Shown one piece after another: positions 895 to 19,812 of a stretch of DNA of 64,000 nt. The stretch comes from Tabrizicola thermarum (lineage in GTDB: Bacteria; Pseudomonadota; Alphaproteobacteria; Rhodobacterales; Rhodobacteraceae). A program made the translations under genes and the position numbers. Below the pieces are notes generated by a model, which was given only the letters and a program-made list of their open reading frames with translations, was not told the origin of the DNA and made no database searches. Every line of letters begins with the position of its first letter. Position 1 is the stretch's first letter. Location of the stretch: assembly GCF_003574395.1 (NCBI RefSeq), contig NZ_KZ984537.1, forward strand, positions 5,665 to 69,664, written 5' to 3'.

Positions 895-1947
895 TCAGGA
901 AAGCCGGTCCAGCATCAGGCGAATCTCGTCAGGATCGACGGAAAAGCCGCCCTCGGCGGGATGGGCGACGACAAAGCCGAAGGTCATGCCCATCCGGTCG
1001 GCGAATTCCTTGTAGGGCAGCGCGAAACGGTCGGGGGGCTGGATCACCAGGAAGGCGCCAGCGTCCGCCATCGAATAGATCGCATGGGAAAGATGGCTGC
1101 CCTCGACGCCGACCACGATCCTTGCGTCCAGCGACCGGCGCGCGATCTCGGAAGCATCCAGGCGGTTCAGGTCGAGAATGTCGAAGCCCTGCGTGGTGAG
1201 AAGGTCGATCAGCGCCGCCTCGTTGACCAGCTCCCGACGCTCGCCATCGCTGCCGCGGCGCAGGAAGACCCCGGCCGGTGCCCGGGCCGACCCGACCGCC
1301 TGCCGCAGACGGGCTCGGAGGGTCCGGTAGCGGGCCGCCTTGAAGGAATTCTGCGCGAAGTCGCTGTAGAGGATCAGACGATCCACCCGGGCGTGATCGG
1401 GAAGATCGGGCGCGGGCAGGTCCAGAAGCGCTCGGTAGCCTGCGGCATGGCCAAAGGCTTTCGACCTGGCGCCCAGCCGGACGGCGCCTTCCGGCGGGAT
1501 CATCTCCAGCGGAAAGGTGTCAAGCAGGAAGTTCCCGAAGAAGTCCGCCCCGGTCCATGAGGCCACAAGATGCGCCTCGGCAATCCGCTGTCGCCGGGGC
1601 AGGTCGGGATCGAGGATCCGCTGCGGTCCGTGGCCGATGCGAAGGGTGCCCCGACCGCAGTAAAGGTAGGCACCCGCAAGGACCGCATTCGTGAACACAT
1701 GGGCGCGGGTCGCGGAATGACGCCCGGGCGCACCTGCGATCAGCGACTGTTCAACGTCCCAGTCGCGCCACGGCGACAGGCGGCTGACCCGTTCGATCGC
1801 CCCGGGGGGGAAGATGGCCGGACGCCCCTCGGCGTCTTCCTCGGGACAAAGGTCCCAGCTTTCGACAGCAAGGGCGTGAAAATCCGCAAGCCTGCCCCCG
1901 ATCAGACGGCGCAAGCCTCTCTGAAGCAGGGCAGTATTCAGGGTCAT
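895..1947 (-). CDS. GT61 (DUF563) family glycosyltransferase
   Basis: Glycosyltransferase of 350 aa, probably cytosolic and part of the polysaccharide cluster that runs off the left edge. The ATG at 1947 overlaps the aminotransferase stop by 4 bases (ATGA); everything further upstream in this frame is Arg/Pro-rich shadow sequence, so I chose this start. Family signs are 'WTGADFFGNFLLDTFPLE' near residue 131 and 'VGVEGSHLSHAIYSM' near residue 279. The latter sits where GT61 proteins carry a G-x-x-G-A/S-x-L-x-N/H motif. The reading frame is complete, unlike both of its neighbours. Donor and acceptor cannot be inferred from sequence. Confidence 0.8.
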   Translation of the reverse strand: MTLNTALLQRGLRRLIGGRLADFHALAVESWDLCPEEDAEGRPAIFPPGAIERVSRLSPWRDWDVEQSLIAGAPGRHSATRAHVFTNAVLAGAYLYCGRGTLRIGHGPQRILDPDLPRRQRIAEAHLVASWTGADFFGNFLLDTFPLEMIPPEGAVRLGARSKAFGHAAGYRALLDLPAPDLPDHARVDRLILYSDFAQNSFKAARYRTLRARLRQAVGSARAPAGVFLRRGSDGERRELVNEAALIDLLTTQGFDILDLNRLDASEIARRSLDARIVVGVEGSHLSHAIYSMADAGAFLVIQPPDRFALPYKEFADRMGMTFGFVVAHPAEGGFSVDPDEIRLMLDRLS

Positions 1948-2980
1948 GGCCGACGGATGACCTCGATGACCCGATCCAGGTCGACCGGATCCAGATCGGG
2001 ATAAAGCGGCAGGCAGAGGATCCGGTCGGCGGCGCGGCGCGCAACGGTCAGGGCATCTGGCGCGGCCGAGGGAAGATGGTGATACATCGGCATGTCGGAA
2101 ATCAGCGGGTAGAAGTAGCGCCGCGCGAACAGGTCGTGCTCCCGCAGCCTTTGGTACAGACCGTCGCGGGTCATCGGATAGGCCTCGCCGACCAGGACCG
2201 GAAAGGCGTAGGAATTGTGCCCCTTCTGTCCCGGGGGGCACAGGCAGGTCACGCCCTCGACTTGCGACAGCGCCTCCCAATAGCGTGTTGCAACCCTGTC
2301 GCGCGCGGCAAAGGCGGCATCCATATGCGGCAGAAGCGCCAGGCCGACGGCGGCGTTCAGCTCGCTCATCTTGGTGTTGAGCCCGGTTTCAAGCACCGTG
2401 ACTTCGTCAAGGATCCCATAGTTGCCCAGGCGATCAAGCGCGACCTTGGTTTCGCGATCCGGCGAGATGATCGCGCCGCCCTCGAAGGTGTTGAAGACCT
2501 TGGTGGCGTGAAAGCTGAGAACCGACAGATCGCCCTCGGCGACAATCGGCCGCCCGCCGCGCCGCACCCCGAAGGCATGTGCGGCATCGTAGATCAGCTT
2601 CAGCCCATGGCGGCTGGCGATGGCCGCAAGAGCCGCCGTGTTGCAGGGCACCCCGTAACAATGCACCGCCAGGATCGCCTCGGTGCGGTCGGTGATCGCG
2701 GCTTCCACCGCCGCGGGGTCCAGGTTCAGCGTCACCGGGTCGATGTCGGCGAAGACCGGCGTGGCGCCCGCCCAGCGGATCGCATGGCTGGTCGCCACGA
2801 ACGAAAAGGGCGGTGTGATTATTTCTCCGGCAATTCCAAAATGCCGAAGCGACAAAAGAAGTCAAATCGAGCCATTGTTCACGATCGAGATGTGCTCGAC
2901 CCCAAGGTATGCCGCAAGGGCCATAGATCCGAGAAGGGCGGCAAAATCGGCCGCGTGACAAAGACTTGCGGGCGTTTCAT
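1944..2980 (-). pseudogene. DegT/DnrJ/EryC1 sugar aminotransferase, deletion plus nonsense codon
   Basis: PLP-dependent nucleotide-sugar aminotransferase family. The likely original start is ATG 2980: 'MKRPQVFVTRPILPPFSDL' is the standard N-terminus. After 'WPL' the frame goes wrong. The next recognisable piece, 'AAYLGVEHISIVNNGS', lies in another frame, so roughly 25 residues (the usual W-L-T-N-N-G-P region) were lost near 2905-2925. In that second frame a TGA at 2862-2864 interrupts the conserved N-N-G-T segment. Beyond it 300 residues are intact, including the PLP lysine in 'SFHATKVFN' and 'YDAAHAFGV'. A TTG at 2855 could start a truncated protein lacking about 60 residues. The stop overlaps the GT61 start. 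Base composition around 2960-3060 is clearly AT-richer than its surroundings. Confidence 0.85.
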
Positions 2981-3251: not shown

Positions 3252-4148
3252 ATGTCGCCGCACCTGCCCGTGGTTCTGGTCGTCGGATCGCTGCACCACG
3301 ACATCATGGTCGAGTCCGATCACCTGCCCAGGGTTGACGAGACGGCGGTCGGGACGCGCTGGTATCCGAAGTTCGGCGGCAAGGGCGGCAACCAGGCCGT
3401 CGCCGCCGGGCAGGCCGGAGCGCGGTCCCGCATGGTCGGCGCGGTGGGGTGCGACGGGTTCGGGGCGTTTCTCCTCGACGCTCTGGACGCAGCGCAGGTC
3501 GACCGCCGCTTTGTCCGGCAGATCGACGGCACAGGCTCGGGGATGAGCGTGGCGATCCAGGATCGCAGCGGGGACTACGCCGCGATCATCGTCTCGGGGG
3601 CCAACCTGCGGATCGATCCGGCGGCTCTGGCCGATCCGGCGCTGTGGACGGACGTGCGGGCCCTCGTGCTTCAGAACGAAATCCCCGAGGCGGTGAATCT
3701 GGCCGCAGCCCGGGCGGCGCGGGGGCGGGATGTGACGGTCATCCTCAACGCGGCCCCGGCGCGCGCGGTGCCGGACGAATTGCGCAAGCTGGTCGACGTG
3801 CTGGTCGTCAACGCGGTCGAGGCAGAGATGTCCGGCGCCGCGACGGTCACCGACCTTGCCTCGGCGGTGGCGGCCGCGACCACTCTGGCCGGGGCCTACC
3901 GCAACGTCGTCGTCACTGCGGGGGCGCAGGGTCTGGCGCTCTGCACGGCGGGGGGCGAACCCATCGCCATCCCGGCGCGCAAGGTCGCGGTCGTCAGCAC
4001 ACACGGTGCCGGCGATTGCTTCACCGGCACTCTGGCCGCCAGACTGGCGCTTGGCCAGTCGCTGGTCGACGCCTGTCACGCGGCCTCGGACGCCGCAGCC
4101 CTGCATGTGTCCGGCAAGGCCGCCTCAGCGCCGCCGGACCGAACCTGA
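3252..4148 (+). CDS. PfkB-family carbohydrate kinase (ribokinase-like)
   Basis: ATP-dependent sugar kinase of 298 aa, cytosolic. It has the N-terminal PfkB signature 'FGGKGGNQAVAAGQAG' (about residue 40) and the C-terminal catalytic signature 'STHGAGDCFTG', in which the usual D-T-x-G-A-G-D reads S-T-H-G-A-G-D. The catalytic base Asp is kept. An AGGGAGAG ribosome-binding site stands just before the ATG. It is followed after 73 bases by a COG3618 lactonase on the same strand. The GGKGGN motif is of ribokinase type, but the substrate is not readable. A second, better-conserved ribokinase lies at 19814. I see no copy of the locus operator upstream of this gene, so it may be regulated apart. Confidence 0.8.
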   Translation: MSPHLPVVLVVGSLHHDIMVESDHLPRVDETAVGTRWYPKFGGKGGNQAVAAGQAGARSRMVGAVGCDGFGAFLLDALDAAQVDRRFVRQIDGTGSGMSVAIQDRSGDYAAIIVSGANLRIDPAALADPALWTDVRALVLQNEIPEAVNLAAARAARGRDVTVILNAAPARAVPDELRKLVDVLVVNAVEAEMSGAATVTDLASAVAAATTLAGAYRNVVVTAGAQGLALCTAGGEPIAIPARKVAVVSTHGAGDCFTGTLAARLALGQSLVDACHAASDAAALHVSGKAASAPPDRT

Positions 4149-4221: not shown

Positions 4222-5064
4222 ATGCCCCGCTTCCCGATCATCGACAGCCACCTGCATCTGTGGGACCCGCAGCGGCTGACCTATCCCTGGCTGTTTCCGC
4301 CGCTCGACCGGCCCTTCCTGCCCGCAGATTTCCAGGCGGCAAGTGCGGGGATCGACATCGAGGCGCTGGTCTTTCTGGAATGCGATGCCGCCATCGATCA
4401 GGCCTTTGCCGAGGCGCAAGCCGTGCTGGCCTGGGCACAGGAAGAACCGCGCATCGCCGCGATGGTCTGCAATGCGGCGCTGGAGCGGGGCGACGCGGTC
4501 CGCGCCGATCTGGAGCGGCTGGCGGGGATCGAAAAGGTGCGCGGTGTCCGGCGCATCTATCAGGACCAGCCCGACCCCGCCTGGTGCCTGCGCCCCGATT
4601 TCGTGGCGGGCGTGCGGGCGCTGGCCGACTATGGGCTGACGTTCGACCTCTGCCTCAAGCACCCGCAGTTGCAGGCGACGATCGGTCTGGCCGATGCCTG
4701 CCCGAACGTTCCGATGGTGCTGGACCACATCGCCAAACCCGGCATCGCGGCGGGGCTGATGCAGCCCTGGGCCGACCAGATGCGCGACCTGGCAAGGCGC
4801 GAGAACGTGGTCTGCAAGCTCTCCGGCGTCGCAACCGAGGCAGGCGCGGACTGGACGCCCGAAACCCTGCGCCCCTACATGGATGTCGCGCTCGAGGCTT
4901 TCGGGCCGTCCCGGATCATGTTCGGCGGCGACTGGCCGGTCTCGACCCTGCGGCTGACCTATCCCGCCTGGGTCGCGCTGGTCGATGACCTGATCCGCGA
5001 CCTGTCAGAAACCGAACAGCGGCAGATTTACGCCGAGACGGCACGGGCCTTCTACCGGCTTTAG
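4222..5064 (+). CDS. Amidohydrolase-2 family lactonase (COG3618, fuconolactonase-like)
   Basis: TIM-barrel metal-dependent hydrolase of 280 aa; members include L-fucono-1,5-lactonase and 2-pyrone-4,6-dicarboxylate lactonase. The start is ATG 4222, preceded by GAGGCCAGG, with the family's N-terminal metal motif 'IIDSHLHLWDPQRL'. Further signs are 'FLECDAA', 'GVRRIYQDQPD', 'MVLDHIAKP' and the C-terminal 'IMFGGDWPVST' with the metal-site Asp. It ends 3 bases before the stop of the convergent UxaA-type dehydratase. Together with the aldo/keto reductase, FucU and the dehydratase it would complete the lactone-opening step of an oxidative deoxysugar/pentose route (inference). Confidence 0.82.
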   Translation: MPRFPIIDSHLHLWDPQRLTYPWLFPPLDRPFLPADFQAASAGIDIEALVFLECDAAIDQAFAEAQAVLAWAQEEPRIAAMVCNAALERGDAVRADLERLAGIEKVRGVRRIYQDQPDPAWCLRPDFVAGVRALADYGLTFDLCLKHPQLQATIGLADACPNVPMVLDHIAKPGIAAGLMQPWADQMRDLARRENVVCKLSGVATEAGADWTPETLRPYMDVALEAFGPSRIMFGGDWPVSTLRLTYPAWVALVDDLIRDLSETEQRQIYAETARAFYRL

Positions 5065-6608: not shown

Positions 6609-6636
6609 TTGACAGTGGCCTGCCTGAGTCTAACAT
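6609..6636 (+). promoter_or_regulatory. Predicted sigma-70 promoter of the gntR operon
   Basis: TTGACA (6609-6614), 16-base spacer, TAACAT (6631-6636). The -10 element lies inside the operator palindrome, the classic arrangement for repression. The expected transcription start is at or within a base or two of the gntR ATG at 6643, so the message would be leaderless. Confidence 0.6.
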
Positions 6637-6645
6637 GTTAGCATG
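6630..6645 (+). promoter_or_regulatory. Operator site 1 (CTAACATGTTAGCATG)
   Basis: Perfect 12-base palindrome CTAACATGTTAG followed by CATG, between the divergent dehydratase and gntR genes. The same 16-mer with C/T and A/G variation recurs at 9425 and 18217, each time in a divergent promoter region of the same locus. Likely bound by the GntR protein encoded next to it (inference). Confidence 0.78.
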
Positions 6646-7374
6646 CTACAAGGGCCCCCGACCGGACCACAAGACCAGAATGGCGCGGCCCTGCTGACGC
6701 CTCTCGACCGATTTCAGGGCTCTCTCGGCCAGCGGGTCTATCAAAGCCTGAAAGAGGCGATCCTCACGCTGGCCTTCCGCCCCGGCGACAGCATCCGCAA
6801 GCCCGAGATCTGCGAGCGTCTGGGGGTTTCGCGCAGCCCCGTGGCCGATGCGGTGGCACGGCTGGCGGCGGATGGCCTTGTCGACGTCATCCCCCAGGCC
6901 GGCACCTTCGTCACCCGCCTGTCGATGACCGACATCCGCGAAGGCGCCTTCATCCGCGAGGCGATCGAGGTCGCCGCCGCCGAACTCGTGGCCGAACGGA
7001 TCACCGAGGACCAGCTGCGCGACCTGCGCCGCACCCTGCGCCTGCAAGAGGCCCTGGTGGCCGATGGCGACCGGCAGGGCTTCATGGCGCTGGACGGCCA
7101 GATGCACGAGATGATGCTGTCCTTCACCGGCTTTCCCCACCTGCCGCAGGTCGCGCAGACCGCCTGGCTGTCGGTGCACCGCGCGCGCCAGCTGATCCTG
7201 CCGGTGGAGGGCCGCCTTCAGGCCACGCTCGACGAACACCGCGCGATCCTTGCCGCTTTCGAGGCGCATGACCCGCCCGCCGCCCGCCTTGCCGTCCAGC
7301 ACCATCTGCGCCAGCTTCTGACCTACCTCGCGCCCCTCGAACGCGCCCACCCCGAGCTTTTCGCAGCCCCATGA
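6643..7374 (+). CDS. GntR-family (FadR/FCD) transcriptional regulator
   Basis: DNA-binding regulator of 243 aa. The winged helix covers about 25-95 ('GQRVYQSLKEAILTLAFRPGD', 'ICERLGVSRSPVADAVARL'). The all-helical FCD ligand domain follows ('EAIEVAAAELVAERI', 'LDGQMHEMML', later 'LDEHRAILAAFEAHDP'), with His residues at positions used for metal/ligand binding in the family. The first in-frame ATG (6643) directly abuts the operator and has no ribosome-binding site; with the promoter above, this points to leaderless translation. The stop overlaps the isomerase start (ATGA). It probably controls the three operator sites of this locus in response to a sugar acid or sugar phosphate. Confidence 0.85.
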   Translation: MLQGPPTGPQDQNGAALLTPLDRFQGSLGQRVYQSLKEAILTLAFRPGDSIRKPEICERLGVSRSPVADAVARLAADGLVDVIPQAGTFVTRLSMTDIREGAFIREAIEVAAAELVAERITEDQLRDLRRTLRLQEALVADGDRQGFMALDGQMHEMMLSFTGFPHLPQVAQTAWLSVHRARQLILPVEGRLQATLDEHRAILAAFEAHDPPAARLAVQHHLRQLLTYLAPLERAHPELFAAP

Positions 7375-8333
7375 TCCCGAACAAGCCCCGCTATGCCACC
7401 CGCCTGAACGCCTTCAAGCGGAAGGGCGACACGGTGGCCCAGATGATCGCTGCCGCCGCGCAGGTCGGGGGCCTCGATGCCGCCGACCTGAACTTCCCCG
7501 ATCATTTCGACCATCATGCCCCGGCCGAACTGTCCCGCATTCTTTCCGACCACGGAATGGCGCTGAACGGCCTTGCCATGCGCTATTACACCGATCCGGG
7601 CTTCCGCCTCGGGGCCTTCAGCCACCCCGATCCCTCGGTGCGCCGCGCCGCCATCGACCTCACGAAACGCGGGATCGACGCGCTGGCGGCGATGGGCGGG
7701 CGGCTGATGACGCTCTGGCTCGGGCAGGACGGCTTCGACTATTCCTTCCAGGCCGATTACGCCCGGATGTGGGACGACAGCATTTCGGCCATCGCCGAGG
7801 TCGCCGACCACAACCCCGCCATCGACATCGCCGTGGAATACAAGCCCAACGAACCCCGCGCCCATGTGGTCATGCCCGACATGGCGACGACGCTGCTGGC
7901 CCTGGCGCAGGTCGCCCGGCCCAACACCGGGGTCACGCTCGACTTCTGCCACATGCTCTTTGCCCAGGAGATGCCCGCCCGTGCGGCGATGCTTGCGGGC
8001 CGTCACAGCCGCATCCTCGGCGTCCACCTGAACGACGGCTACGGCAAGCGCGACGATGGCCTCATCGCGGGCTCGGTGCATCCAGTCCAGACCGTCGAAC
8101 TCTTCGTGGCGCTGGACCGTCTTGCTTATGACGGGGTGATCTACTTCGACACCTTCCCCGACCATGGCGGCACCGATCCGGTCGGCGAGGCGCGGGCGAA
8201 CATCGCCGCGACCGACCGCCTGCGCGCCATCGCGCGGGACCTTGCGGGCAACGCCGATCTGGCCGCAGCCCAGGCCCGTCAGGACGCCGCCGCCGCCACC
8301 CGCATCGTGATGACCGCGCTTTACGGCGCCTGA
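7371..8333 (+). CDS. Sugar (phosphate) isomerase/epimerase, xylose-isomerase-like TIM barrel
   Basis: TIM-barrel protein of 320 aa, co-translated with gntR (ATGA overlap). Likely metal ligands lie in 'AVEYKPNEPRAH' (Glu), 'TLDFCHMLFAQE' (Asp, His), 'HLNDGYGKRDDG' and 'YFDTFPDHGGTD', in the order of AP-endonuclease-2/xylose-isomerase-like enzymes. It probably interconverts an aldose and a ketose or epimerises a keto-sugar. The substrate is not deducible. Pairing with an FGGY kinase in the same regulon suggests it makes the kinase substrate (inference). It ends 51 bases before the convergent aldo/keto reductase. Confidence 0.78.
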   Translation: MIPNKPRYATRLNAFKRKGDTVAQMIAAAAQVGGLDAADLNFPDHFDHHAPAELSRILSDHGMALNGLAMRYYTDPGFRLGAFSHPDPSVRRAAIDLTKRGIDALAAMGGRLMTLWLGQDGFDYSFQADYARMWDDSISAIAEVADHNPAIDIAVEYKPNEPRAHVVMPDMATTLLALAQVARPNTGVTLDFCHMLFAQEMPARAAMLAGRHSRILGVHLNDGYGKRDDGLIAGSVHPVQTVELFVALDRLAYDGVIYFDTFPDHGGTDPVGEARANIAATDRLRAIARDLAGNADLAAAQARQDAAAATRIVMTALYGA

Positions 8334-9424: not shown

Positions 9425-9440
9425 CTGACATGCTAGTATG
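9425..9440 (+). promoter_or_regulatory. Operator site 2 (CTGACATGCTAGTATG)
   Basis: Second copy of the locus operator, with two substitutions relative to sites 1 and 3 and in the same orientation. It lies 18 bases upstream of the aldo/keto reductase start and 58 bases upstream of the btpA start, so it could control both divergent units. Confidence 0.7.
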
Positions 9441-9497: not shown

Positions 9498-10310
9498 ATG
9501 TCACGCTTCAAGGCCGTTTTCGGCGACCGCAAGCCCGTCATCGCCATGGTTCATCTCGGCGCCTCGCCGGGGGCGCCGTTGCATGACGCCGCCGCCGGGG
9601 TCGAGGGCATCCTCGCCGCCGCCCGCGCCGACCTGCGCGCGCTGCAAGCCGCAGGCTTCGACGCGGTGATGTTCGGCAACGAAAACGACCGGCCCTACGA
9701 GCTGCGCGTCGATGCCGCCACCTCCGCCACCATGGCCTACATCATCGGCCGCCTGCGGGACGAGATCACCGTGCCCTTCGGCGTCAACGTGCTTTGGGAC
9801 CCGATGGCCAGCCTTGCCGTCGCCGCCGCCACGGGTGCCGCCTTCGTGCGCGAGATCTTCACCGGCACCTATGCCTCTGACATGGGCATCTGGGCCCCCG
9901 ACGCCGGCGCCGCCGTCCGCTATGCCCAGCGGCTGGGGGCCGGAGACGTCGCCCGCCTCTACAACGTCTCGGCCGAATTCGCCGACAGCCTCGACCGCCG
10001 CCCCCTGCCGGATCGGGCGCGGTCCGCCGTCTTCTCCTCGATCCCCGACGCCGTCCTCGTCTCGGGCGCGATCACCGGCGAGGCCGCGCGGATGGAGGAC
10101 CTCGAAGCCGTCAAGCGCGTCCTGCCCACCACCCCCGTCCTCGCCAACACCGGGGTGAAACACGCCACGATCGCCGATGTCCTGGCCGTGGCCGACGGCT
10201 GCATCGTCGGCTCCGCGCTGAAGGTTGGCGGAGACACCTGGGCCGCCGTCGACCCCGACCGCGCCGCCGATTTCATGGCCCGCGCCCGCGCGGCACGAGG
10301 CGGGAAATGA
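9498..10310 (+). CDS. BtpA/SgcQ family TIM-barrel protein
   Basis: 270-aa protein of the BtpA/SgcQ family: 'RKPVIAMVHLGASPGAP' at the N-terminus, 'DAVMFGNENDRPYE', 'PFGVNVLWDPMASLAVAAA', 'PVLANTGVKH', 'GCIVGSALKVGG' near the end. BtpA was first linked to photosystem I accumulation in cyanobacteria, but most members sit in sugar operons and their reaction is unknown to me. GGGAGG lies 6 bases before the second ATG (9498), which I prefer to the ATG at 9492. It opens a four-gene chain in which every junction overlaps by 4 bases. In E. coli the homologue sgcQ shares an operon with the M42 protein sgcX (recalled), as here. Confidence 0.85.
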   Translation: MSRFKAVFGDRKPVIAMVHLGASPGAPLHDAAAGVEGILAAARADLRALQAAGFDAVMFGNENDRPYELRVDAATSATMAYIIGRLRDEITVPFGVNVLWDPMASLAVAAATGAAFVREIFTGTYASDMGIWAPDAGAAVRYAQRLGAGDVARLYNVSAEFADSLDRRPLPDRARSAVFSSIPDAVLVSGAITGEAARMEDLEAVKRVLPTTPVLANTGVKHATIADVLAVADGCIVGSALKVGGDTWAAVDPDRAADFMARARAARGGK

Positions 10311-11395
10311 CTCTCCCCTCCGTCGCCGAACTGACCACCCAACTCATGCTGATCCCCGGTCTCGCGGGTTATGAGACCCGCGTCGCCGCCGCCATCGCAG
10401 CACACCTCGACACCCTCGGCCTGCCGCACACCTCCGACCGCCTCGGCAACCTGACCTGCACGATTCCCGGCGACTCGGCCCTGCCGCCGGTCATGGTCTT
10501 CACCCACATGGACCAGCTCGGCTTCATCGTCCGCAAGATCGAAGCCTCGGGCCTGATCCGCCTCGAACGCCTCGGCGGCGTCCCCGAACGTGCACTTCCC
10601 GCGCAAGCGGTCCTCCTCTGCACCGACCACGGGGACCTCCCCGCCCTCATCGCCAACAAAAGCCACCACGCCACCTCGCCGGAGGAGAAATACAAGGTCC
10701 TCCCCTACGCCGAGCTCTACGTCGATGCGGGCTTCACCTCGAAAGCCGAAGCCGAGGCCGCAGGCGTCCGCATCGGGACCCCCGTCACCTACCTCCCCCG
10801 CGCGCTGACCCTCGCCAACGGCCGCATCGCCGGCACCTCGGTCGACGACCGCGCAGGCTGCGCCGCCCTCCTCAAACTCGCCGAGGCCCGCCAGCACAAA
10901 CCCGGCCCCATCCTTCACCTCGTCTGGTCGGTGCAAGAGGAATACAACCTCCGCGGCGTCCTCCCCGCCGCCACCGCGCTCCAACCCGCCATCGCGCTTC
11001 AGATCGACCTCCTCCTCGCCTGCGACACCCCCGACATGACGGCCCGAGGCGACGTCACCCTCGGCGGCGGCCCCGGCATCTCGCTCTACTCCTTCCACGG
11101 TCGCGGCACCCTGAACGGCGTCATCCCCCACCCCGCCCTCGTCCGCCTGTTGGAAACCGCCGCCGCCACCGCCAACCTCCCCCTGCAACGCTCCGCCCAT
11201 ACCGGAGCCCTCACCGACCTTTCCTACATCCAGTTCACGGGGCCCGAGGGCGTCGCCTGTCTCGATGTCGGCTTCCCGATGCGCTACTCGCACTCCGCCC
11301 TCGAAGTGGTGGACCCGGCAGACCTGCAAGGCCTCGTGACCCTCCTCGACACCGCGCTTTCCGCCATCACCCCGGACCTGAAACTCACCCGATGA
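10307..11395 (+). CDS. M42-family metallohydrolase (SgcX/FrvX-like)
   Basis: Protein of 362 aa in the M42 glutamyl-aminopeptidase/'endoglucanase' family. Likely metal ligands and catalytic residues are all present: 'VFTHMDQLGFIV' (His, Asp), 'TSVDDRAGCAAL' (Asp), 'WSVQEEYNLRG' (Glu-Glu), 'LLACDTPDM' (Asp), 'MRYSHSALE' (His). Homologues include true aminopeptidases, but sugar-operon members such as SgcX and FrvX have no proven substrate (recalled). The start overlaps the btpA stop (ATGA). The coding strand is markedly C-rich, with CTC as the usual leucine codon: the 60 bases from 10861 hold 32 C and 10 G by hand count. Most neighbours prefer CTG. This may mean a different origin. Confidence 0.82.
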   Translation: MTLPSVAELTTQLMLIPGLAGYETRVAAAIAAHLDTLGLPHTSDRLGNLTCTIPGDSALPPVMVFTHMDQLGFIVRKIEASGLIRLERLGGVPERALPAQAVLLCTDHGDLPALIANKSHHATSPEEKYKVLPYAELYVDAGFTSKAEAEAAGVRIGTPVTYLPRALTLANGRIAGTSVDDRAGCAALLKLAEARQHKPGPILHLVWSVQEEYNLRGVLPAATALQPAIALQIDLLLACDTPDMTARGDVTLGGGPGISLYSFHGRGTLNGVIPHPALVRLLETAAATANLPLQRSAHTGALTDLSYIQFTGPEGVACLDVGFPMRYSHSALEVVDPADLQGLVTLLDTALSAITPDLKLTR

Positions 11396-12867
11396 CCCAC
11401 ACCCTCGGTATCGACATCGGCACCTTCGAATCCAAAGGCGTCCTCGTCGACGCCAAGGGCCGCATCACCGCCCAGGCCTCCCGCCCGCACCGGATGCTCG
11501 TCCCCCGCGCCGGATGGGCCGAGCACCGCGCGGACGAGGACTGGTGGGGCGATTTCGTCCACATCACCCGCGACCTCCTCAGCCAGTCCGGCCTGAACCC
11601 CAGCGACATCAAGGCCGTCGCCACCTCTGCCATCGGCCCCTGCATGCTGCCCGTGGACGCCGCAGGCAAACCCCTGATGAATGGCGTCCTCTACGGCGTC
11701 GATACCCGCGCCACCGACCAGATCGCCGCCCTGAACGCCCGGATCGGAGAGGCCACCATCCACCAACGCTGCGGCAACGCGCTGACCTCGCAATCCGTCG
11801 GGCCCAAGATCCTCTGGCTCAAGGAAACCCACCCCGACCTTTACGCCCGCACGGCCAAGGTCCTGACCTCGACCAGCTACCTCACCTGGAAGCTGACCGG
11901 CGCATACGTCATCGACCACTACACCGCCGCCAACTTCTCGCCCCTTTACGACGTCACCACCCAGGACTGGACCGCCGACCTCGCCCCCGAGATCATCCCC
12001 CTCGACAAACTCCCGCGCCTCATGTGGTCCACCGAGATCGCCGGCCACATCACCGCCGCCGCCGCAGCCGAGACCGGCCTTGCCGAAGGCACCCCCGTCA
12101 CCTGCGGCACCATCGACGCCGCCGCCGAGGCGGTCAGCGTCGGCGTCCAGAACCCGGGCGAGATGATGCTGATGTATGGCTCGACCATCTTCATCATCCA
12201 GGTCACGGGCGAACCCGTCCGCGACCCGCGCCTGTGGTATGCGCCCTGGCTCTTCCCCGGCACCCATGCCTCGATGGCGGGCCTTGCCACCTCTGGCACG
12301 CTGACCCACTGGTTCCGCGACCAGCTGGCCCGCGACACCGACTTTGCCGCCCTCGTCACCGAGGCCGCCCAAAGCCCCAAGGGCGCCAAGGGCCTCCTCT
12401 GCCTGCCCTATTTCTCCGGTGAGCGCACGCCGATCCACGACCCGCACGCCCGCGGCGTGTTCTTCGGCCTGAACCTCACCCACACCCGCGCCGACCTGTT
12501 CCGCGCCGTCTGCGAAGGCATCGCCGCAGGCACCGCGCATGTGCTGGAAACCTATGCCGAGGTCGGCGCCTCCCCCGCCCGTGTCCTCGCCGTCGGCGGC
12601 GGCACGAAGAACCCGCTCTGGCTGCAAGCCACCTCCGACTTCGGCGGCGTTCCGCAGCACGTCTGCGAAAAGACCATCGGTGCCAGCTACGGCGACGCCT
12701 TCCTCGCCGCCTGCGCCATCGGGGCGGCGCAGCCGCAGGACATCCTGGCCTGGAACCCGAACGCGACCACGGTCCAGCCCGAAGCCGTCCCCGCCTATGC
12801 CACGCAATACCCGCTGTGGAAGCGGCTCTACACCCAGACCCGCGACCTGATGCAGGCCCTGCCGTGA
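11392..12867 (+). CDS. FGGY-family carbohydrate kinase (xylulokinase-like)
   Basis: ATP-dependent sugar kinase of 491 aa, usual family length. The N-terminal phosphate loop is 'LGIDIGTFESKGVLVD', followed by 'SAIGPCMLPVD', the middle 'TCGTIDAAAEAVSVG', 'MLMYGSTIFI' and the C-terminal ATP-binding 'VLAVGGGTKNPLWLQ'. Position and length fit xylulose/ribulose/fuculose-type kinases, but I cannot fix the sugar. It is joined to the M42 gene by ATGA and to the creatininase gene by GTGA overlaps, so its expression is tightly coupled to the module. It shares the C-rich codon use of the M42 gene. Confidence 0.86.
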   Translation: MTHTLGIDIGTFESKGVLVDAKGRITAQASRPHRMLVPRAGWAEHRADEDWWGDFVHITRDLLSQSGLNPSDIKAVATSAIGPCMLPVDAAGKPLMNGVLYGVDTRATDQIAALNARIGEATIHQRCGNALTSQSVGPKILWLKETHPDLYARTAKVLTSTSYLTWKLTGAYVIDHYTAANFSPLYDVTTQDWTADLAPEIIPLDKLPRLMWSTEIAGHITAAAAAETGLAEGTPVTCGTIDAAAEAVSVGVQNPGEMMLMYGSTIFIIQVTGEPVRDPRLWYAPWLFPGTHASMAGLATSGTLTHWFRDQLARDTDFAALVTEAAQSPKGAKGLLCLPYFSGERTPIHDPHARGVFFGLNLTHTRADLFRAVCEGIAAGTAHVLETYAEVGASPARVLAVGGGTKNPLWLQATSDFGGVPQHVCEKTIGASYGDAFLAACAIGAAQPQDILAWNPNATTVQPEAVPAYATQYPLWKRLYTQTRDLMQALP

Positions 12868-13601
12868 CCGACTTCGCCCGCCTCCGCCCGCACCAGCTGC
12901 AAGAGGCCATCGCGGCGAATACCCCCGTCGTCCTGCCCATCGGCGTGCTGGAGTATCACGGCCAGCATCTGCCCGCCGGGGTGGACCTTCTGGCGGTGAC
13001 CGAGGTCCTCGACCGCCTCGGCGATGCCGTCATCACTCTGCCGCCCTTCGCCTATGGCGCGGCAAGTCATGCTGTCGCGGGGCCGGAAGGGACCGGCACG
13101 ATCCACATCGACGCGGGCGCTATCCTGCCACTGGCCGAGGGGCTGTTCACTGCACTTTTGAAGGCAGGCTTCCGCAACATCCGTGGCGTGATCCACCACC
13201 AGACCGAAGGCTTCGATCAGGGGATGCCGACCGACCTTGCCTTCCGCCTTGCCGGTCGCACTGCGATCATGCGGTTCCTGGAAGGCACGCGCGGCCCCGG
13301 CTGGTGGGGCGACCGGGGGATGCAGGACTATTACGCCCGGCAGGCAGAGGGGGCCGACCCGTTCAACTGGATCCGCATCCACCCGCTGTTTCCCAAGGGT
13401 GCCGACTTCCCCTTCGATCACGCAGGGCAGGGCGAGACCGCCCTGATGCAGGCGCTTGCCCCCGACACGGTGGACATGGACCGCGCGCTGGAGGGGGGGC
13501 ACTGGTATACCGAGGATGCCGATCAGGCCTCCCGCACACTGGGAGAAGCGGGCGTGCAGATCGCACTGACCCATCTGCGGCAGGTGCTGGGTCTCGCCTG
13601 A
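12864..13601 (+). CDS. Creatininase-family amidohydrolase
   Basis: 245-aa protein starting at GTG 12864 (GTGA overlap with the kinase); upstream residues in the frame are shadow sequence. 'LPIGVLEYHGQHLPAGVDLL' near residue 25 is the family's metal motif (E-x-H-G-x-H-L-P-x-x-x-D). 'GFRNIRGVIHHQTEGFDQG' and 'FDHAGQGETALM' match the later His and Glu ligands. Members hydrolyse cyclic or linear amides such as creatinine or formamidopyrimidine intermediates (established). The presence of an amide hydrolase at the end of a sugar-kinase operon suggests a nitrogen-containing sugar derivative as substrate (inference). Last gene of the module. Confidence 0.8.
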   Translation: MTDFARLRPHQLQEAIAANTPVVLPIGVLEYHGQHLPAGVDLLAVTEVLDRLGDAVITLPPFAYGAASHAVAGPEGTGTIHIDAGAILPLAEGLFTALLKAGFRNIRGVIHHQTEGFDQGMPTDLAFRLAGRTAIMRFLEGTRGPGWWGDRGMQDYYARQAEGADPFNWIRIHPLFPKGADFPFDHAGQGETALMQALAPDTVDMDRALEGGHWYTEDADQASRTLGEAGVQIALTHLRQVLGLA

Positions 13602-13686: not shown

Positions 13687-14142
13687 TCACAACTCGGGCA
13701 ACTCCACCACGCCCTTCTTCAGGATGAAGCAGCCATAGGGGCCGGAGTCCGAGGTGCGGATGATCGCGAAGGCTTGCTTGGCGGCGGCGTAGAACTCGAA
13801 CCGCTCCAGCGCCGCGATGCGCACCGGGCGCCCCTCGGCCTGATCGACGACCGCCTGCATCCGGGCGAAGATCGGCACCTGCCCGTCCGGGTTGCCCACC
13901 ACCTGCATCCGCTGGACCGGGGCCGGGACGAAGGTATCCAGCGGCATCAGCGTCAGGATCGCCCTTGCGGCCGTGGGGATGTCGCATCCCGCCATGTCGA
14001 TCAGGCGCCCATAGGTCGTCTCTGCCGCAATGGTCGCCGCCGGGTGGTTGACATCGCAGATCACCAGATCATCGCCATGCCCCATCAGCATCAGGACATG
14101 CACCACCTCGGCCGACAGTCTCTGGTCGATCCCTTTCAGCAT
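13687..14142 (-). CDS. FucU/RbsD-family sugar mutarotase, copy 1
   Basis: 151-aa protein of the RbsD/FucU family, which interconverts the anomers or ring forms of fucose or ribose in the cytosol (established). 'MLKGIDQRLSAEV' and 'MGHGDDLVICDVNHP' hold the catalytic His and Asp, and 'YGCFILKKGV' is the C-terminal signature. Last gene of the minus-strand transporter operon (binding protein, two permeases, this gene). A second copy at 19360, roughly 45% identical by eye, ends the opposite operon. The length and 'MLKGI' start fit FucU better than RbsD. Confidence 0.85.
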   Translation of the reverse strand: MLKGIDQRLSAEVVHVLMLMGHGDDLVICDVNHPAATIAAETTYGRLIDMAGCDIPTAARAILTLMPLDTFVPAPVQRMQVVGNPDGQVPIFARMQAVVDQAEGRPVRIAALERFEFYAAAKQAFAIIRTSDSGPYGCFILKKGVVELPEL

Positions 14143-18216: not shown

Positions 18217-18232
18217 CTAACATGTTAGTATG
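18217..18232 (+). promoter_or_regulatory. Operator site 3 (CTAACATGTTAGTATG)
   Basis: Third copy of the locus operator. The 12-base palindrome is identical to site 1 and differs in one base of the CATG tail (T for C at the 13th base). It lies between the divergent transporter operons, 83 bases before the ATPase start. A plausible promoter toward the ATPase is GCGACA (18195-18200), 17 bases, TAACAT (18218-18223), again with the -10 inside the operator. Confidence 0.76.
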
Positions 18233-18299: not shown

Positions 18300-19349
18300 T
18301 TGGCCGAGGTGACGATCCGCGCGTTGCGCAAGACTTATGGCGGCTTGCAGGTCATCCACGGGCTGGATCTGGACATACCGGACGGGGCCTTTGTCGTGCT
18401 GGTCGGGCCGTCGGGCTGCGGAAAGTCCACCCTGTTGCGGATGATCGCGGGGCTGGAGGAAGTCACGGCGGGCGACATCCTGATCGGCGCGCGACGGGTG
18501 AACAACCTGCCCCCGTCCGAGCGTGACATCGCCATGGTGTTCCAGAACTACGCGCTTTACCCGCACAAGACCGTGGGCGCGAACATGGGCTTTGCGCTGA
18601 AGATGCGCGGAATGGACAAGGCGGCGATTCGGGCAAAGGTCGAACGCGCGGCCGAGATTCTGGGGCTGACCCCCTACCTCGACCGTTATCCCCGCGCGCT
18701 GTCTGGCGGTCAGCGCCAGCGCGTGGCGATGGGCCGGGCCATCGTGCGCGACCCGCAGGTGTTCCTGTTCGACGAACCGCTGTCGAACCTCGACGCCAAG
18801 CTGCGCGTCCAGATGCGCACCGAGATCAAGGAGCTGCACCAGCGGCTGAAGACGACCACGGTCTATGTCACGCACGACCAGATCGAGGCGATGACGATGG
18901 CCGACCGGATCGTCGTGATGCAGGGCGGCCGGATCGAGCAGGTCGGCGCGCCGCTGGAACTGTACGACCGCCCGGCGAACACCTTCGTCGCGGCCTTCAT
19001 CGGCAGCCCGTCGATGAACCTGCTGGACGGCCGAATTGCGGGCGGGCGGGTGGAGGTTGCAGGGGCCAGCCTGCCCCTGCCTCCGGGGGTGGCCGCCGAG
19101 GAGGGCCGCGAGGTGGTCTACGGCATCCGGCCCGAGCATCTGGCCGAGGCGGCGCAGGGCCTGACCGGCACGGTGGCCGTGGTCGAACCGACGGGGTCGG
19201 AAACCCATGTCGTCGTCCGCCTTCCGGGCCGCGAGGTCACGGCGGTTTTCCGGAACCGGGTAAGTTTCGGGCCGGGGGCCACGATCACACTGGCGCCCGA
19301 CGCCGCCGTGGCGCATCTATTCGACAGGGCCTCGGGCCGGCGGCTGTAA
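18300..19349 (+). CDS. ABC sugar transporter ATPase, MalK/UgpC type
   Basis: Cytosolic ATPase of 349 aa that powers the importer. TTG 18300 is chosen because CAGGGGAGGG precedes it and the homologous N-terminus '[15 protein letters not shown]' begins there. Walker A is 'GPSGCGKST', then the Q-loop '[12 protein letters not shown]', signature '[15 protein letters not shown]', Walker B '[12 protein letters not shown]', H-loop 'VTHDQ'. The C-terminal TOBE/regulatory part (about 235-349) is shorter than in E. coli MalK. It lies 10 bases before the second fucU-like gene. It opens the plus-strand operon controlled by operator site 3. Confidence 0.9.
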
Positions 19350-19359
19350 GGGGGGAGAG

Positions 19360-19812
19360 ATGCTGAAAGGAATAGACAACCGGCTGAACGCCGAGGTGCT
19401 GGCCACCTTGCGCGCGATGGGCCACGGCGACGTGCTGATCGTTGCGGACACCAATTTTCCGTCGGATTCGGTTGCGCGGGCCACGGTGACGGGCAAGCTT
19501 CTGCGGATGGAGAACCTGACCTGCGCCGAGGCGGTGAACGCGATCCTGTCGGTCCTGCCGCTTGACACCTTCGTCGCGGATTTCGCGGGCCGGATGGAGG
19601 TCGTCGGCGCGCCGGACGAGATTCCGCCCGTGCAAAGGGAGGTCCAGGCCGAGATCGACCGCGCCGAGGGCCGTCCGCGCCCGATGATCGGGATCGAACG
19701 CTTTGCCTTCTACGACATGGCGCGCAAATCCTATGCCGTGATCCAGACCGGCGAGCGCCGCTTCTACGGCTGCTTCATGTTCCGCAAGGGCGTGATCCCA
19801 CCGGAGGCGTGA
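19360..19812 (+). CDS. FucU/RbsD-family sugar mutarotase, copy 2
   Basis: 150-aa paralogue of the protein at 13687, with the same landmarks: 'MLKGIDNRLNAEV', 'MGHGDVLIVADTNFP', 'FYGCFMFRKGVI'. The gap to the ribokinase start is one base and GGAGG lies near the stop, so the two are translationally coupled. Having one mutarotase in each divergent transporter operon suggests either two sugars or the two anomer equilibria of one sugar. The close tie to ribokinase would fit an RbsD-like role for this copy and a FucU-like role for the other (inference). Confidence 0.85.
   Translation: MLKGIDNRLNAEVLATLRAMGHGDVLIVADTNFPSDSVARATVTGKLLRMENLTCAEAVNAILSVLPLDTFVADFAGRMEVVGAPDEIPPVQREVQAEIDRAEGRPRPMIGIERFAFYDMARKSYAVIQTGERRFYGCFMFRKGVIPPEA

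What the first reader, a model, noticed from the sequence alone, without database searches (positions are those of the whole stretch)
9498..13601. BtpA/SgcQ - M42/SgcX - FGGY kinase - creatininase: an overlapping module with no known pathway
Four genes are joined by three 4-base overlaps, so their products are made in coupled amounts. The BtpA/SgcQ reaction is unknown to me, M42 members in sugar operons have no proven substrate, and creatininase-family enzymes cut amides. The sgcQ-sgcX neighbourhood recurs in E. coli in a PTS operon (recalled), here in an ABC/kinase setting. Together they hint at catabolism of an unusual, perhaps nitrogen-bearing sugar derivative that ends as a phosphorylated ketose. 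This is the strongest candidate for an undescribed system in the window.
Basis: partly seen in the sequence, partly recalled or inferred. Interest (0 to 1): 0.8.

Follow-up and report, generated by a model that had tools for sequence, protein, structure and literature searches.

The report
GntR-controlled sugar regulon with BtpA/SgcQ
The four-gene operon appears to be one arm of a larger sugar-uptake and breakdown system under one regulator, and genomes that lost or swapped one of its genes suggest that the uncharacterised BtpA/SgcQ protein does the same job here as in a ribitol-type sugar-alcohol operon.

Summary
In detail: BtpA/SgcQ, M42/SgcX, FGGY kinase and a creatininase-family protein are joined by three 4-base overlaps. 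The conserved core is BtpA-M42-FGGY: in 83 countable loci (81 distinct), M42 follows BtpA in 83 and FGGY follows in 80; creatininase follows directly in only 38. The proteins are of the E. coli sgc kind (46% to SgcQ, 37% to SgcX). The module does not stand alone. A palindromic site found three times in the 3.65-Mb genome lies at this promoter, at the GntR promoter and at the ABC-importer promoter, so I read the module as one arm of a GntR regulon (importer, mutarotases, ribokinase, isomerase-like protein, oxidative arm). SgcQ-clade BtpA also sits in ABC-SDR-FGGY operons; one rhizobial binding protein closely matches 5IAI, a structure holding ribitol. Of 56 family genomes with this M42, seven lack an intact local BtpA; four of the seven carry the SDR-operon type of BtpA elsewhere, none of the other 49 does; three reverse swaps were seen. 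I infer that BtpA acts on the FGGY product, probably a pentulose phosphate. Substrate, reaction and the roles of M42 and creatininase are unproven. No described pathway was found in the open-access papers searched.

The parts
9498..10310 (+). BtpA/SgcQ family protein (A-type of the SgcQ clade); predicted phosphate-binding-type TIM barrel
   Evidence: PF03437 241.9 bits; 46% to E. coli SgcQ; model pLDDT 84.3; trees
10307..11395 (+). M42 metallopeptidase-family protein of SgcX type
   Evidence: PF05343 230.7 bits; 37% to SgcX; motif HGRGT[LM]xG
11392..12867 (+). FGGY carbohydrate kinase, xylulokinase-like but under the equivalog cut-off
   Evidence: PF00370/PF02782; TIGR01312 303.5 bits against cut-off 380.25
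12864..13601 (+). creatininase-family protein (optional member)
   Evidence: PF02633 100.8 bits; directly downstream in 38 of 83 loci
9426..9440 (+). shared site TGACATGCTAGTATG between AKR and BtpA
6631..6645 (+). shared site TAACATGTTAGCATG at the GalD-like/GntR promoter; overlaps the ATG called for GntR
18218..18232 (+). shared site TAACATGTTAGTATG between binding protein and ABC ATPase
6643..7374 (+). GntR/FCD regulator, proposed to bind the shared site
   Evidence: PF00392 and PF07729; site upstream of BtpA in 52 of 61 loci with this GntR, 8 of 35 without
7371..8333 (+). xylose-isomerase-like TIM barrel, overlaps GntR by 4 bases
   Evidence: PF01261 90.5 bits
8385..9405 (-). aldo-keto reductase, divergent from BtpA (start read by eye)
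   Evidence: PF00248 149 bits
5068..6636 (-). galactarate/altronate-dehydratase-like protein
   Evidence: PF20629, PF04295; TIGR03248 372.5 bits, cut-off 730.85
4222..5064 (+). amidohydrolase, lactonase-like; no shared site found before it
   Evidence: PF04909; L-fucono-1,5-lactonase model 151.8 bits, cut-off 400
3252..4148 (+). PfkB kinase 1; no shared site found before it
   Evidence: PF00294 157.9 bits
13687..14142 (-). RbsD/FucU family protein 1
   Evidence: PF05025 118.6 bits
14236..15201 (-). ABC permease 1
   Evidence: PF00528
15209..16312 (-). ABC permease 2
   Evidence: PF00528
16386..18011 (-). ABC substrate-binding protein, 541 aa
   Evidence: PF01547 47 bits; generic sugar-binding fold in a low-confidence model
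18300..19349 (+). ABC ATPase, UgpC/MalK type
   Evidence: NF008653 505.3 bits, cut-off 432
19360..19812 (+). RbsD/FucU family protein 2
   Evidence: PF05025 119.2 bits
19814..20731 (+). ribokinase-type PfkB kinase 2
   Evidence: TIGR02152 303.8 bits, cut-off 299.65; NF008353 273.2, cut-off 341 not reached

Best explanation
The stretch from about 5.1 to 20.7 kb is one catabolic regulon for an imported sugar or sugar conjugate, controlled by the GntR/FCD protein at 6643. Shown by sequence: a conserved BtpA-M42-FGGY core, and one palindromic site at three divergent promoters and nowhere else in the genome at up to 1 mismatch. Inferred: GntR binds the site; the ABC system imports the compound; the FucU-type proteins and the isomerase-like TIM barrel handle a free aldose; AKR, lactonase-like and dehydratase-like proteins form an oxidative arm; the overlapping operon forms a phosphorylating arm. 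In that arm FGGY makes a ketose phosphate, most likely a pentulose phosphate, and BtpA converts it (aldol cleavage or isomerisation), the same step that SgcQ-clade BtpA performs in SDR-FGGY polyol operons. M42, in some species with the creatininase-family protein, would hydrolyse the imported derivative to free the sugar for FGGY; this last part is the weakest.
For: Core order conserved. Site three times in 3.65 Mb, control 0. BtpA has a predicted TIM barrel whose closest solved structures include phosphate-binding enzymes. SDR-FGGY-BtpA operons with ABC importer; the binding protein of L194 matches 5iai_A with 656 bits, which PMC8468352 uses as a ribitol structure (passages). Swaps: of 56 genomes with SgcX-type M42, 7 lack an intact local BtpA and 4 of these 7 hold the B-type BtpA elsewhere, a fifth holds an SgcQ-clade one, while 0 of 49 with A-type BtpA hold a B-type (4 of 4 falling in the 7, p = 9.5e-5 if genomes were independent). 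Reverse swaps: A-clade BtpA in SDR-FGGY operons of Shinella, Labrenzia and G1066.
Against: Two of the 7 (G924, 86% complete; G1078, 71% complete) have no other BtpA found, so BtpA may be dispensable. The B-type copies proposed as stand-ins (L050, L051, L052, L184) carry no copy of the GntR site at up to 2 mismatches, and in G085 the B-type copy has no FGGY or SDR found near it. Genomes share ancestry, so the p value is too good. The window FGGY and the B-type FGGY are only 31-36% identical (for the former query). No M42 in B-type operons. Binding-protein ligand in a crystal need not be the natural substrate. 9 of 61 loci with the GntR lack the site before BtpA. Fold matches do not single out a reaction. 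sgc mutants had no growth defect.
Confidence: 0.42

Rival explanations
1. Nitrogen-bearing sugar: the imported compound is an N-acyl, aminoacyl or glycosylamine-type sugar; M42 and creatininase-family proteins open the amide, and BtpA removes or rearranges the nitrogen-bearing part of the phosphorylated sugar (as TrpF- or HisA-like barrels do).
For: Two amide-hydrolase-type families in the operon; amide-hydrolase-type genes beside BtpA in other loci; a NagA-type amidohydrolase, ROK kinase and SIS_2 gene upstream in Devosia loci; sgc induction on nitrogen-containing carbon sources.
Against: No control for these neighbour counts was run; SDR-FGGY-BtpA operons lack a shared amide hydrolase; creatininase absent beside the core in more than half of the loci.
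Confidence: 0.25
2. De Ley-Doudoroff-like single route: AKR, lactonase-like and dehydratase-like proteins make a 2-keto-3-deoxy acid, FGGY phosphorylates it and BtpA cleaves it to pyruvate, like KDPG aldolase.
For: Both arms share the site; KDPG and KDPGal aldolases are among the top fold matches.
Against: SDR-FGGY-BtpA operons and Devosia-type loci have no dehydratase found beside them; L218 keeps AKR and lactonase-like genes without BtpA-M42-FGGY; other barrels match equally well.
Confidence: 0.1
3. Repair or detoxification: BtpA and M42 dispose of a damaged or side-product sugar phosphate made by the kinases instead of carrying the main flux.
For: BtpA goes with different kinases or a PTS; HAD phosphatases stand in some operons; the module is missing from some regulons (L218-L220); sgc mutants grew normally.
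Against: In the SDR-FGGY-BtpA operons with annotation no other enzyme for the ketose phosphate stands beside BtpA; this is not decisive, since D-ribulose or D-xylulose 5-phosphate would need none.
Confidence: 0.15

Closest known systems
E. coli sgcXBCQAER operon
   Same: SgcQ and SgcX relatives together (46% and 37% identity); sugar phosphate expected
   Different: PTS and RPE-like SgcE in E. coli; here ABC importer, FGGY kinase and GntR; function of sgc unknown
Alphaproteobacterial ABC-SDR-FGGY polyol operons (ribitol-type)
   Same: SgcQ-clade BtpA beside an FGGY kinase and an ABC importer
   Different: SDR and DeoR instead of M42, FucU, GntR; BtpA B-type in most, A-clade in Shinella, Labrenzia, G1066
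E. coli fuc route FucU-FucI-FucK-FucA (route recalled)
   Same: FucU-family protein, isomerase-like barrel, FGGY kinase and a last step that BtpA could fill
   Different: FucU matches under cut-off (70.0 and 76.8 of 141); fuculokinase model 100.3 of 470.9; no FucA relative seen
Oxidative L-fucose/L-rhamnose-type pathway
   Same: AKR, lactonase-like, dehydratase-like genes; SDR and FAH hydrolase relatives as a pair elsewhere in the genome (67% each)
   Different: Every model tested is under its curated cut-off
RuMP pair HPS/PHI
   Same: HxlB-like SIS gene after FGGY in 23 of 83 loci; HPS/PHI among fold matches of BtpA
   Different: SIS protein 143 and 154 bits, cut-off 160; no HxlB-like gene in this window's operon; BtpA is not an HPS by any sequence search made

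Membership tests
BtpA/SgcQ family (PF03437, TIGR00259) | score over curated cut-off | tested here: met
   241.9 of 30 bits; 244.2 of 153.4
Photosystem I biogenesis protein BtpA (NF045918) | score over equivalog cut-off | tested here: not met
   151.4 of 400 bits
SgcX-type M42 | clade motif HGRGT[LM]xG shared with SgcX | tested here: met
   99 of 99 M42 reading frames of the loci (93 distinct, E. coli and Salmonella SgcX included); not seen in the four best PDB chains
M42 aminopeptidase | peptidase activity | not testable with these tools
   metal-ligand positions (recalled) are kept in the alignments
E. coli sgc operon kind | PTS components beside SgcQ and SgcX | tested here: not met
   ABC importer and FGGY kinase instead
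Xylulokinase (TIGR01312) | score over equivalog cut-off | tested here: not met
   303.5 of 380.25 bits
Creatininase (TIGR04448), IolN (NF041098) | score over equivalog cut-off | tested here: not met
   69.2 of 235 and 31.2 of 245 bits
Ribokinase (PfkB 2) | score over equivalog cut-off | tested here: met
   TIGR02152 303.8 of 299.65, but NF008353 273.2 of 341
L-fucose mutarotase (NF011949) | score over equivalog cut-off | tested here: not met
   70.0 and 76.8 of 141 bits
KDPG aldolase, HPS and other phosphate-binding TIM barrels | a fold match that stands out | tested here: inconclusive
Ribitol-type pathway | BtpA exchangeable with B-type BtpA | tested here: inconclusive
   4 of 7 against 0 of 49 genomes, 2 of 7 without any other BtpA; no experiment

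The most novel reading that the evidence does not exclude
BtpA/SgcQ is an uncharacterised enzyme family that converts a ketose phosphate (aldolase or isomerase) and is exchangeable between a ribitol-type SDR-FGGY pathway, this M42-FGGY regulon and the sgc operon; SgcX-type M42 is a peptidase-fold enzyme recruited to free the sugar from a conjugate.
Probability: 0.3. Interest if true: 0.75.

Novelty: new variant of a known kind. Interest (0 to 1): 0.6.

Why it matters
BtpA/SgcQ and SgcX occur in well-studied bacteria without a known reaction; the sgc operon of E. coli gave no growth phenotype and its substrate is unknown. The gene swaps suggest where to look: the reaction can be sought in the simplest setting, an SDR-FGGY-BtpA operon with ribitol as a suggested ligand, and then carried over to this regulon and to sgc. 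The shared site marks out a regulon whose inducer can be screened for.

Tried and rejected
Rejected: the four genes as a self-contained pathway; creatininase as an obligate member; the photosystem protein as an equivalent. The binding-protein model (pLDDT 67.4, 21 close sequences) gave only a generic sugar-binding fold. A PDB sequence search with BtpA found nothing at E 0.01. Fold searches named no reaction. My first gene caller set few genes in some loci (L039, L045, L047, L049; these have 40-55% G+C), and my first counts missed 22 loci whose start lies inside the alignment; one search replaces both. One search aligned a protein with an unrelated frame and is worthless. The guess that SgcX-type M42 is always with A-type BtpA failed: 7 of 56 genomes. 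A search for M42 in 385 class genomes found 4, of which one (L190, 30-32%) is not of this type by identity.

Papers. Read: section 8 of PMC13343008 and passages of it. Passages only: PMC8468352, PMC5797941 (sgcXBCQAER encodes a PTS for an unknown sugar, SlyA-repressed), PMC11433714 (names the family, cites a 2024 New Phytologist paper on cyanobacterial BtpA in tetrapyrrole biosynthesis, which is not held, and which I did not read). All others were seen as listings. One search listed 40 of 232 papers and one search listed 20 of 60; the library holds open-access papers only, so the lack of a described pathway is limited to that.
Full report
Observation. Pfam confirms the four families. No equivalog model reaches its cut-off for BtpA, M42, FGGY or the creatininase-family protein; BtpA passes the subfamily model TIGR00259.

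Conservation. I fetched 20 stretches from the family and the best 80 of 459 BtpA relatives in named genomes, mostly Rhodobacterales, also Devosia, Hoeflea, Stappia and other Hyphomicrobiales. Of these 100, 83 could be counted (3 left out for BtpA under 65%, 14 for too little sequence; two genomes occur twice). M42 follows BtpA in 83 of 83 and FGGY follows in 80 of 83. Creatininase follows directly in 38, an HxlB-like SIS protein in 23, both in 8, neither in 30. The SIS protein scores 143 and 154 bits against the HxlB cut-off of 160. The core is three genes with optional additions.

Link to sgc. The window BtpA is 46% identical to SgcQ, the M42 37% to SgcX. Of 99 M42 reading frames in the loci (93 distinct) 99 carry HGRGT[LM]xG and 97 [QL]EE[FY]NxRG; the first motif is not in the four best solved M42 chains as aligned. 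The SgcX type is a recognisable subgroup.

One regulon. In the window and 12 relatives the stretch between AKR and BtpA holds a nearly invariant block. The same sequence stands before GntR and between binding protein and ABC ATPase. TRACATGYTAGYATG occurs three times without mismatch in the window (5 matches at up to 2 mismatches, expected 0.15) and three times in the 3.65-Mb genome at up to 1 mismatch, in this locus each time; the reversed control gave 0. In the 100 relatives there were 200 matches in 71 loci (both strands counted) against 1 in one mononucleotide shuffle; 138 of the 200 lie at GalD/GntR, AKR/BtpA or ATPase/binding-protein gaps. The site precedes BtpA in 52 of 61 loci with the GntR homologue and 8 of 35 without; some of the latter are cut short; 4 of 100 were not countable. 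By position the site could serve six transcription units: dehydratase-like; GntR with isomerase-like barrel; AKR; BtpA-M42-FGGY-creatininase; binding protein, permeases and FucU; ATPase, FucU and ribokinase. That GntR binds it is inference. No site was found before PfkB1 or the lactonase-like gene.

The arms can be separated. Devosia-type loci hold BtpA-M42-FGGY, importer and FucU without the oxidative genes nearby. G083 holds importer, FucU, two PfkB kinases, isomerase-like protein, GntR, AKR and a distant lactonase-like protein but no BtpA-M42-FGGY (L218; no hit in its genome). In 149 family genomes M42 is in 25, the binding protein in 27, both in 21. L110 and L130 hold importer, BtpA, M42, kinase, FucU, isomerase-like and SIS proteins, then a HAD phosphatase and an aldehyde dehydrogenase, with no FGGY in the stretch. 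The own genome has an adjacent pair of SDR and FAH-hydrolase relatives (67% each) elsewhere, so the oxidative arm could be completed.

BtpA contexts. Of 398 phylum genomes 22 have a match, 19 over the cut-off. Trees show a distant clade C (beside PfkB, often with phosphotriesterase-like, class-I amidotransferase and TenA genes), an SgcQ clade proper, the B-type clade and the A-type sequences of this locus; the order among A, B and SgcQ is unresolved, and the bootstrap had not settled. B-type stands with FGGY, SDR, DeoR and an ABC importer in L050-L052, L134, L168, L171, L176, L191, L194, L228 and L229 (in L051 and L229 the set was partly found); L184 is an exception. A sugar kinase or PTS was found near BtpA in most contexts; my queries found none near it in L135, L183, L184 and L226. 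In the rhizobial A-type locus L167 the importer is of another kind and DhaK and DhaL relatives follow. The predicted fold (pLDDT 84.3) agrees with a phosphorylated substrate but does not name the reaction.

Ribitol. The binding protein of the Rhizobium operon L194 matches 5iai_A at 656 bits over residues 30-428. PMC8468352 (passages) treats 5IAI as a crystal structure of ribitol. A route ribitol-SDR-FGGY-BtpA is plausible there. The Labrenzia binding protein matches 5iai with only 125 bits, so other polyols are possible elsewhere.

Gene swaps. In 340 family genomes SgcX-type M42 is in 56 and A-type BtpA in 51 (three partial: G022 in two frames, G102 and G1006 short); 49 have both (counted from lists copied by hand). 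The 7 with M42 but no intact local BtpA: G040 (another ORF in the gap), G068 (194-base gap), G085 (139-base gap), G140 (about 77 N-terminal residues left), G920 (287-base gap), G924 (146-base gap), G1078 (60 C-terminal residues left). G040, G068, G085 and G140 hold B-type BtpA (50-56%) elsewhere, G920 an SgcQ-clade one (45%), G924 and G1078 none (86% and 71% complete). B-type is in 6 of 340 genomes: these four and two without M42 (G1063, G989); 0 of the 49 genomes with M42 and A-type BtpA has a B-type. The chance of the four falling among the seven is 9.5e-5 if genomes were independent, which they are not; the lesions differ, which suggests several losses. The stand-in copies carry no GntR site at up to 2 mismatches, a result against co-regulation. 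In reverse, Shinella, Labrenzia and G1066 have SDR-FGGY operons with a BtpA that groups with the A-type L167 (98/99 support). The simplest reading is that A- and B-type BtpA do the same reaction and that both pathways meet at one phosphorylated intermediate.

Literature. PMC13343008 (section 8): sgcABCEQX is induced on nitrogen-containing carbon sources, mutants grew normally, substrate and function unknown. PMC5797941 (passages): a PTS operon for an unknown sugar. No paper giving BtpA/SgcQ a catabolic function was found in the searches, which list only part of the hits and hold open-access papers only.

Verdict. A real, conserved and, as far as searched, uncharacterised system, larger than described, of a known general kind (ABC-linked sugar catabolism) with two protein families of unknown reaction at its centre. 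What BtpA does has become testable; what M42 and the creatininase-family protein do has not.

Noticed in passing
L137, L139-L141, L166, L170, L172-L174, L179-L181: A distant BtpA clade stands beside a PfkB kinase, often with phosphotriesterase-like, class-I amidotransferase and TenA genes and an ABC importer: another uncharacterised recurrent cluster.
   Followed up: partly
L090, L091, L096, L108: In Devosia the BtpA operon lies beside permeases, a ROK kinase, a GntR/UTRA regulator, a SIS_2 protein and an amidohydrolase (families read in L108), which looks like an amino-sugar cluster.
   Followed up: partly
L167:8204-18732: BtpA-M42-FGGY in a rhizobial-type genome with another importer type and DhaK/DhaL relatives downstream.
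   Followed up: partly
L056, L058, L076, L079, L082, L089, L103, L128 and L033 between permease 2 and binding protein: A block with a membrane protein resembling PucC/LhaA-type proteins (recalled by eye, no family search) stands between permease and binding protein (clusters c19, c20, c26, c30).
   Followed up: no
window 13687-14142 and 19360-19812: Two RbsD/FucU-family genes in one regulon, both under the FucU cut-off.
   Followed up: no
window 895-2855, minus strand: A DegT-like aminotransferase and a possible glycosyltransferase left of the regulon, seen in translation only.
   Followed up: no
window 6631-6648: The shared site covers the ATG called for GntR, so its true start may lie downstream.
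   Followed up: no
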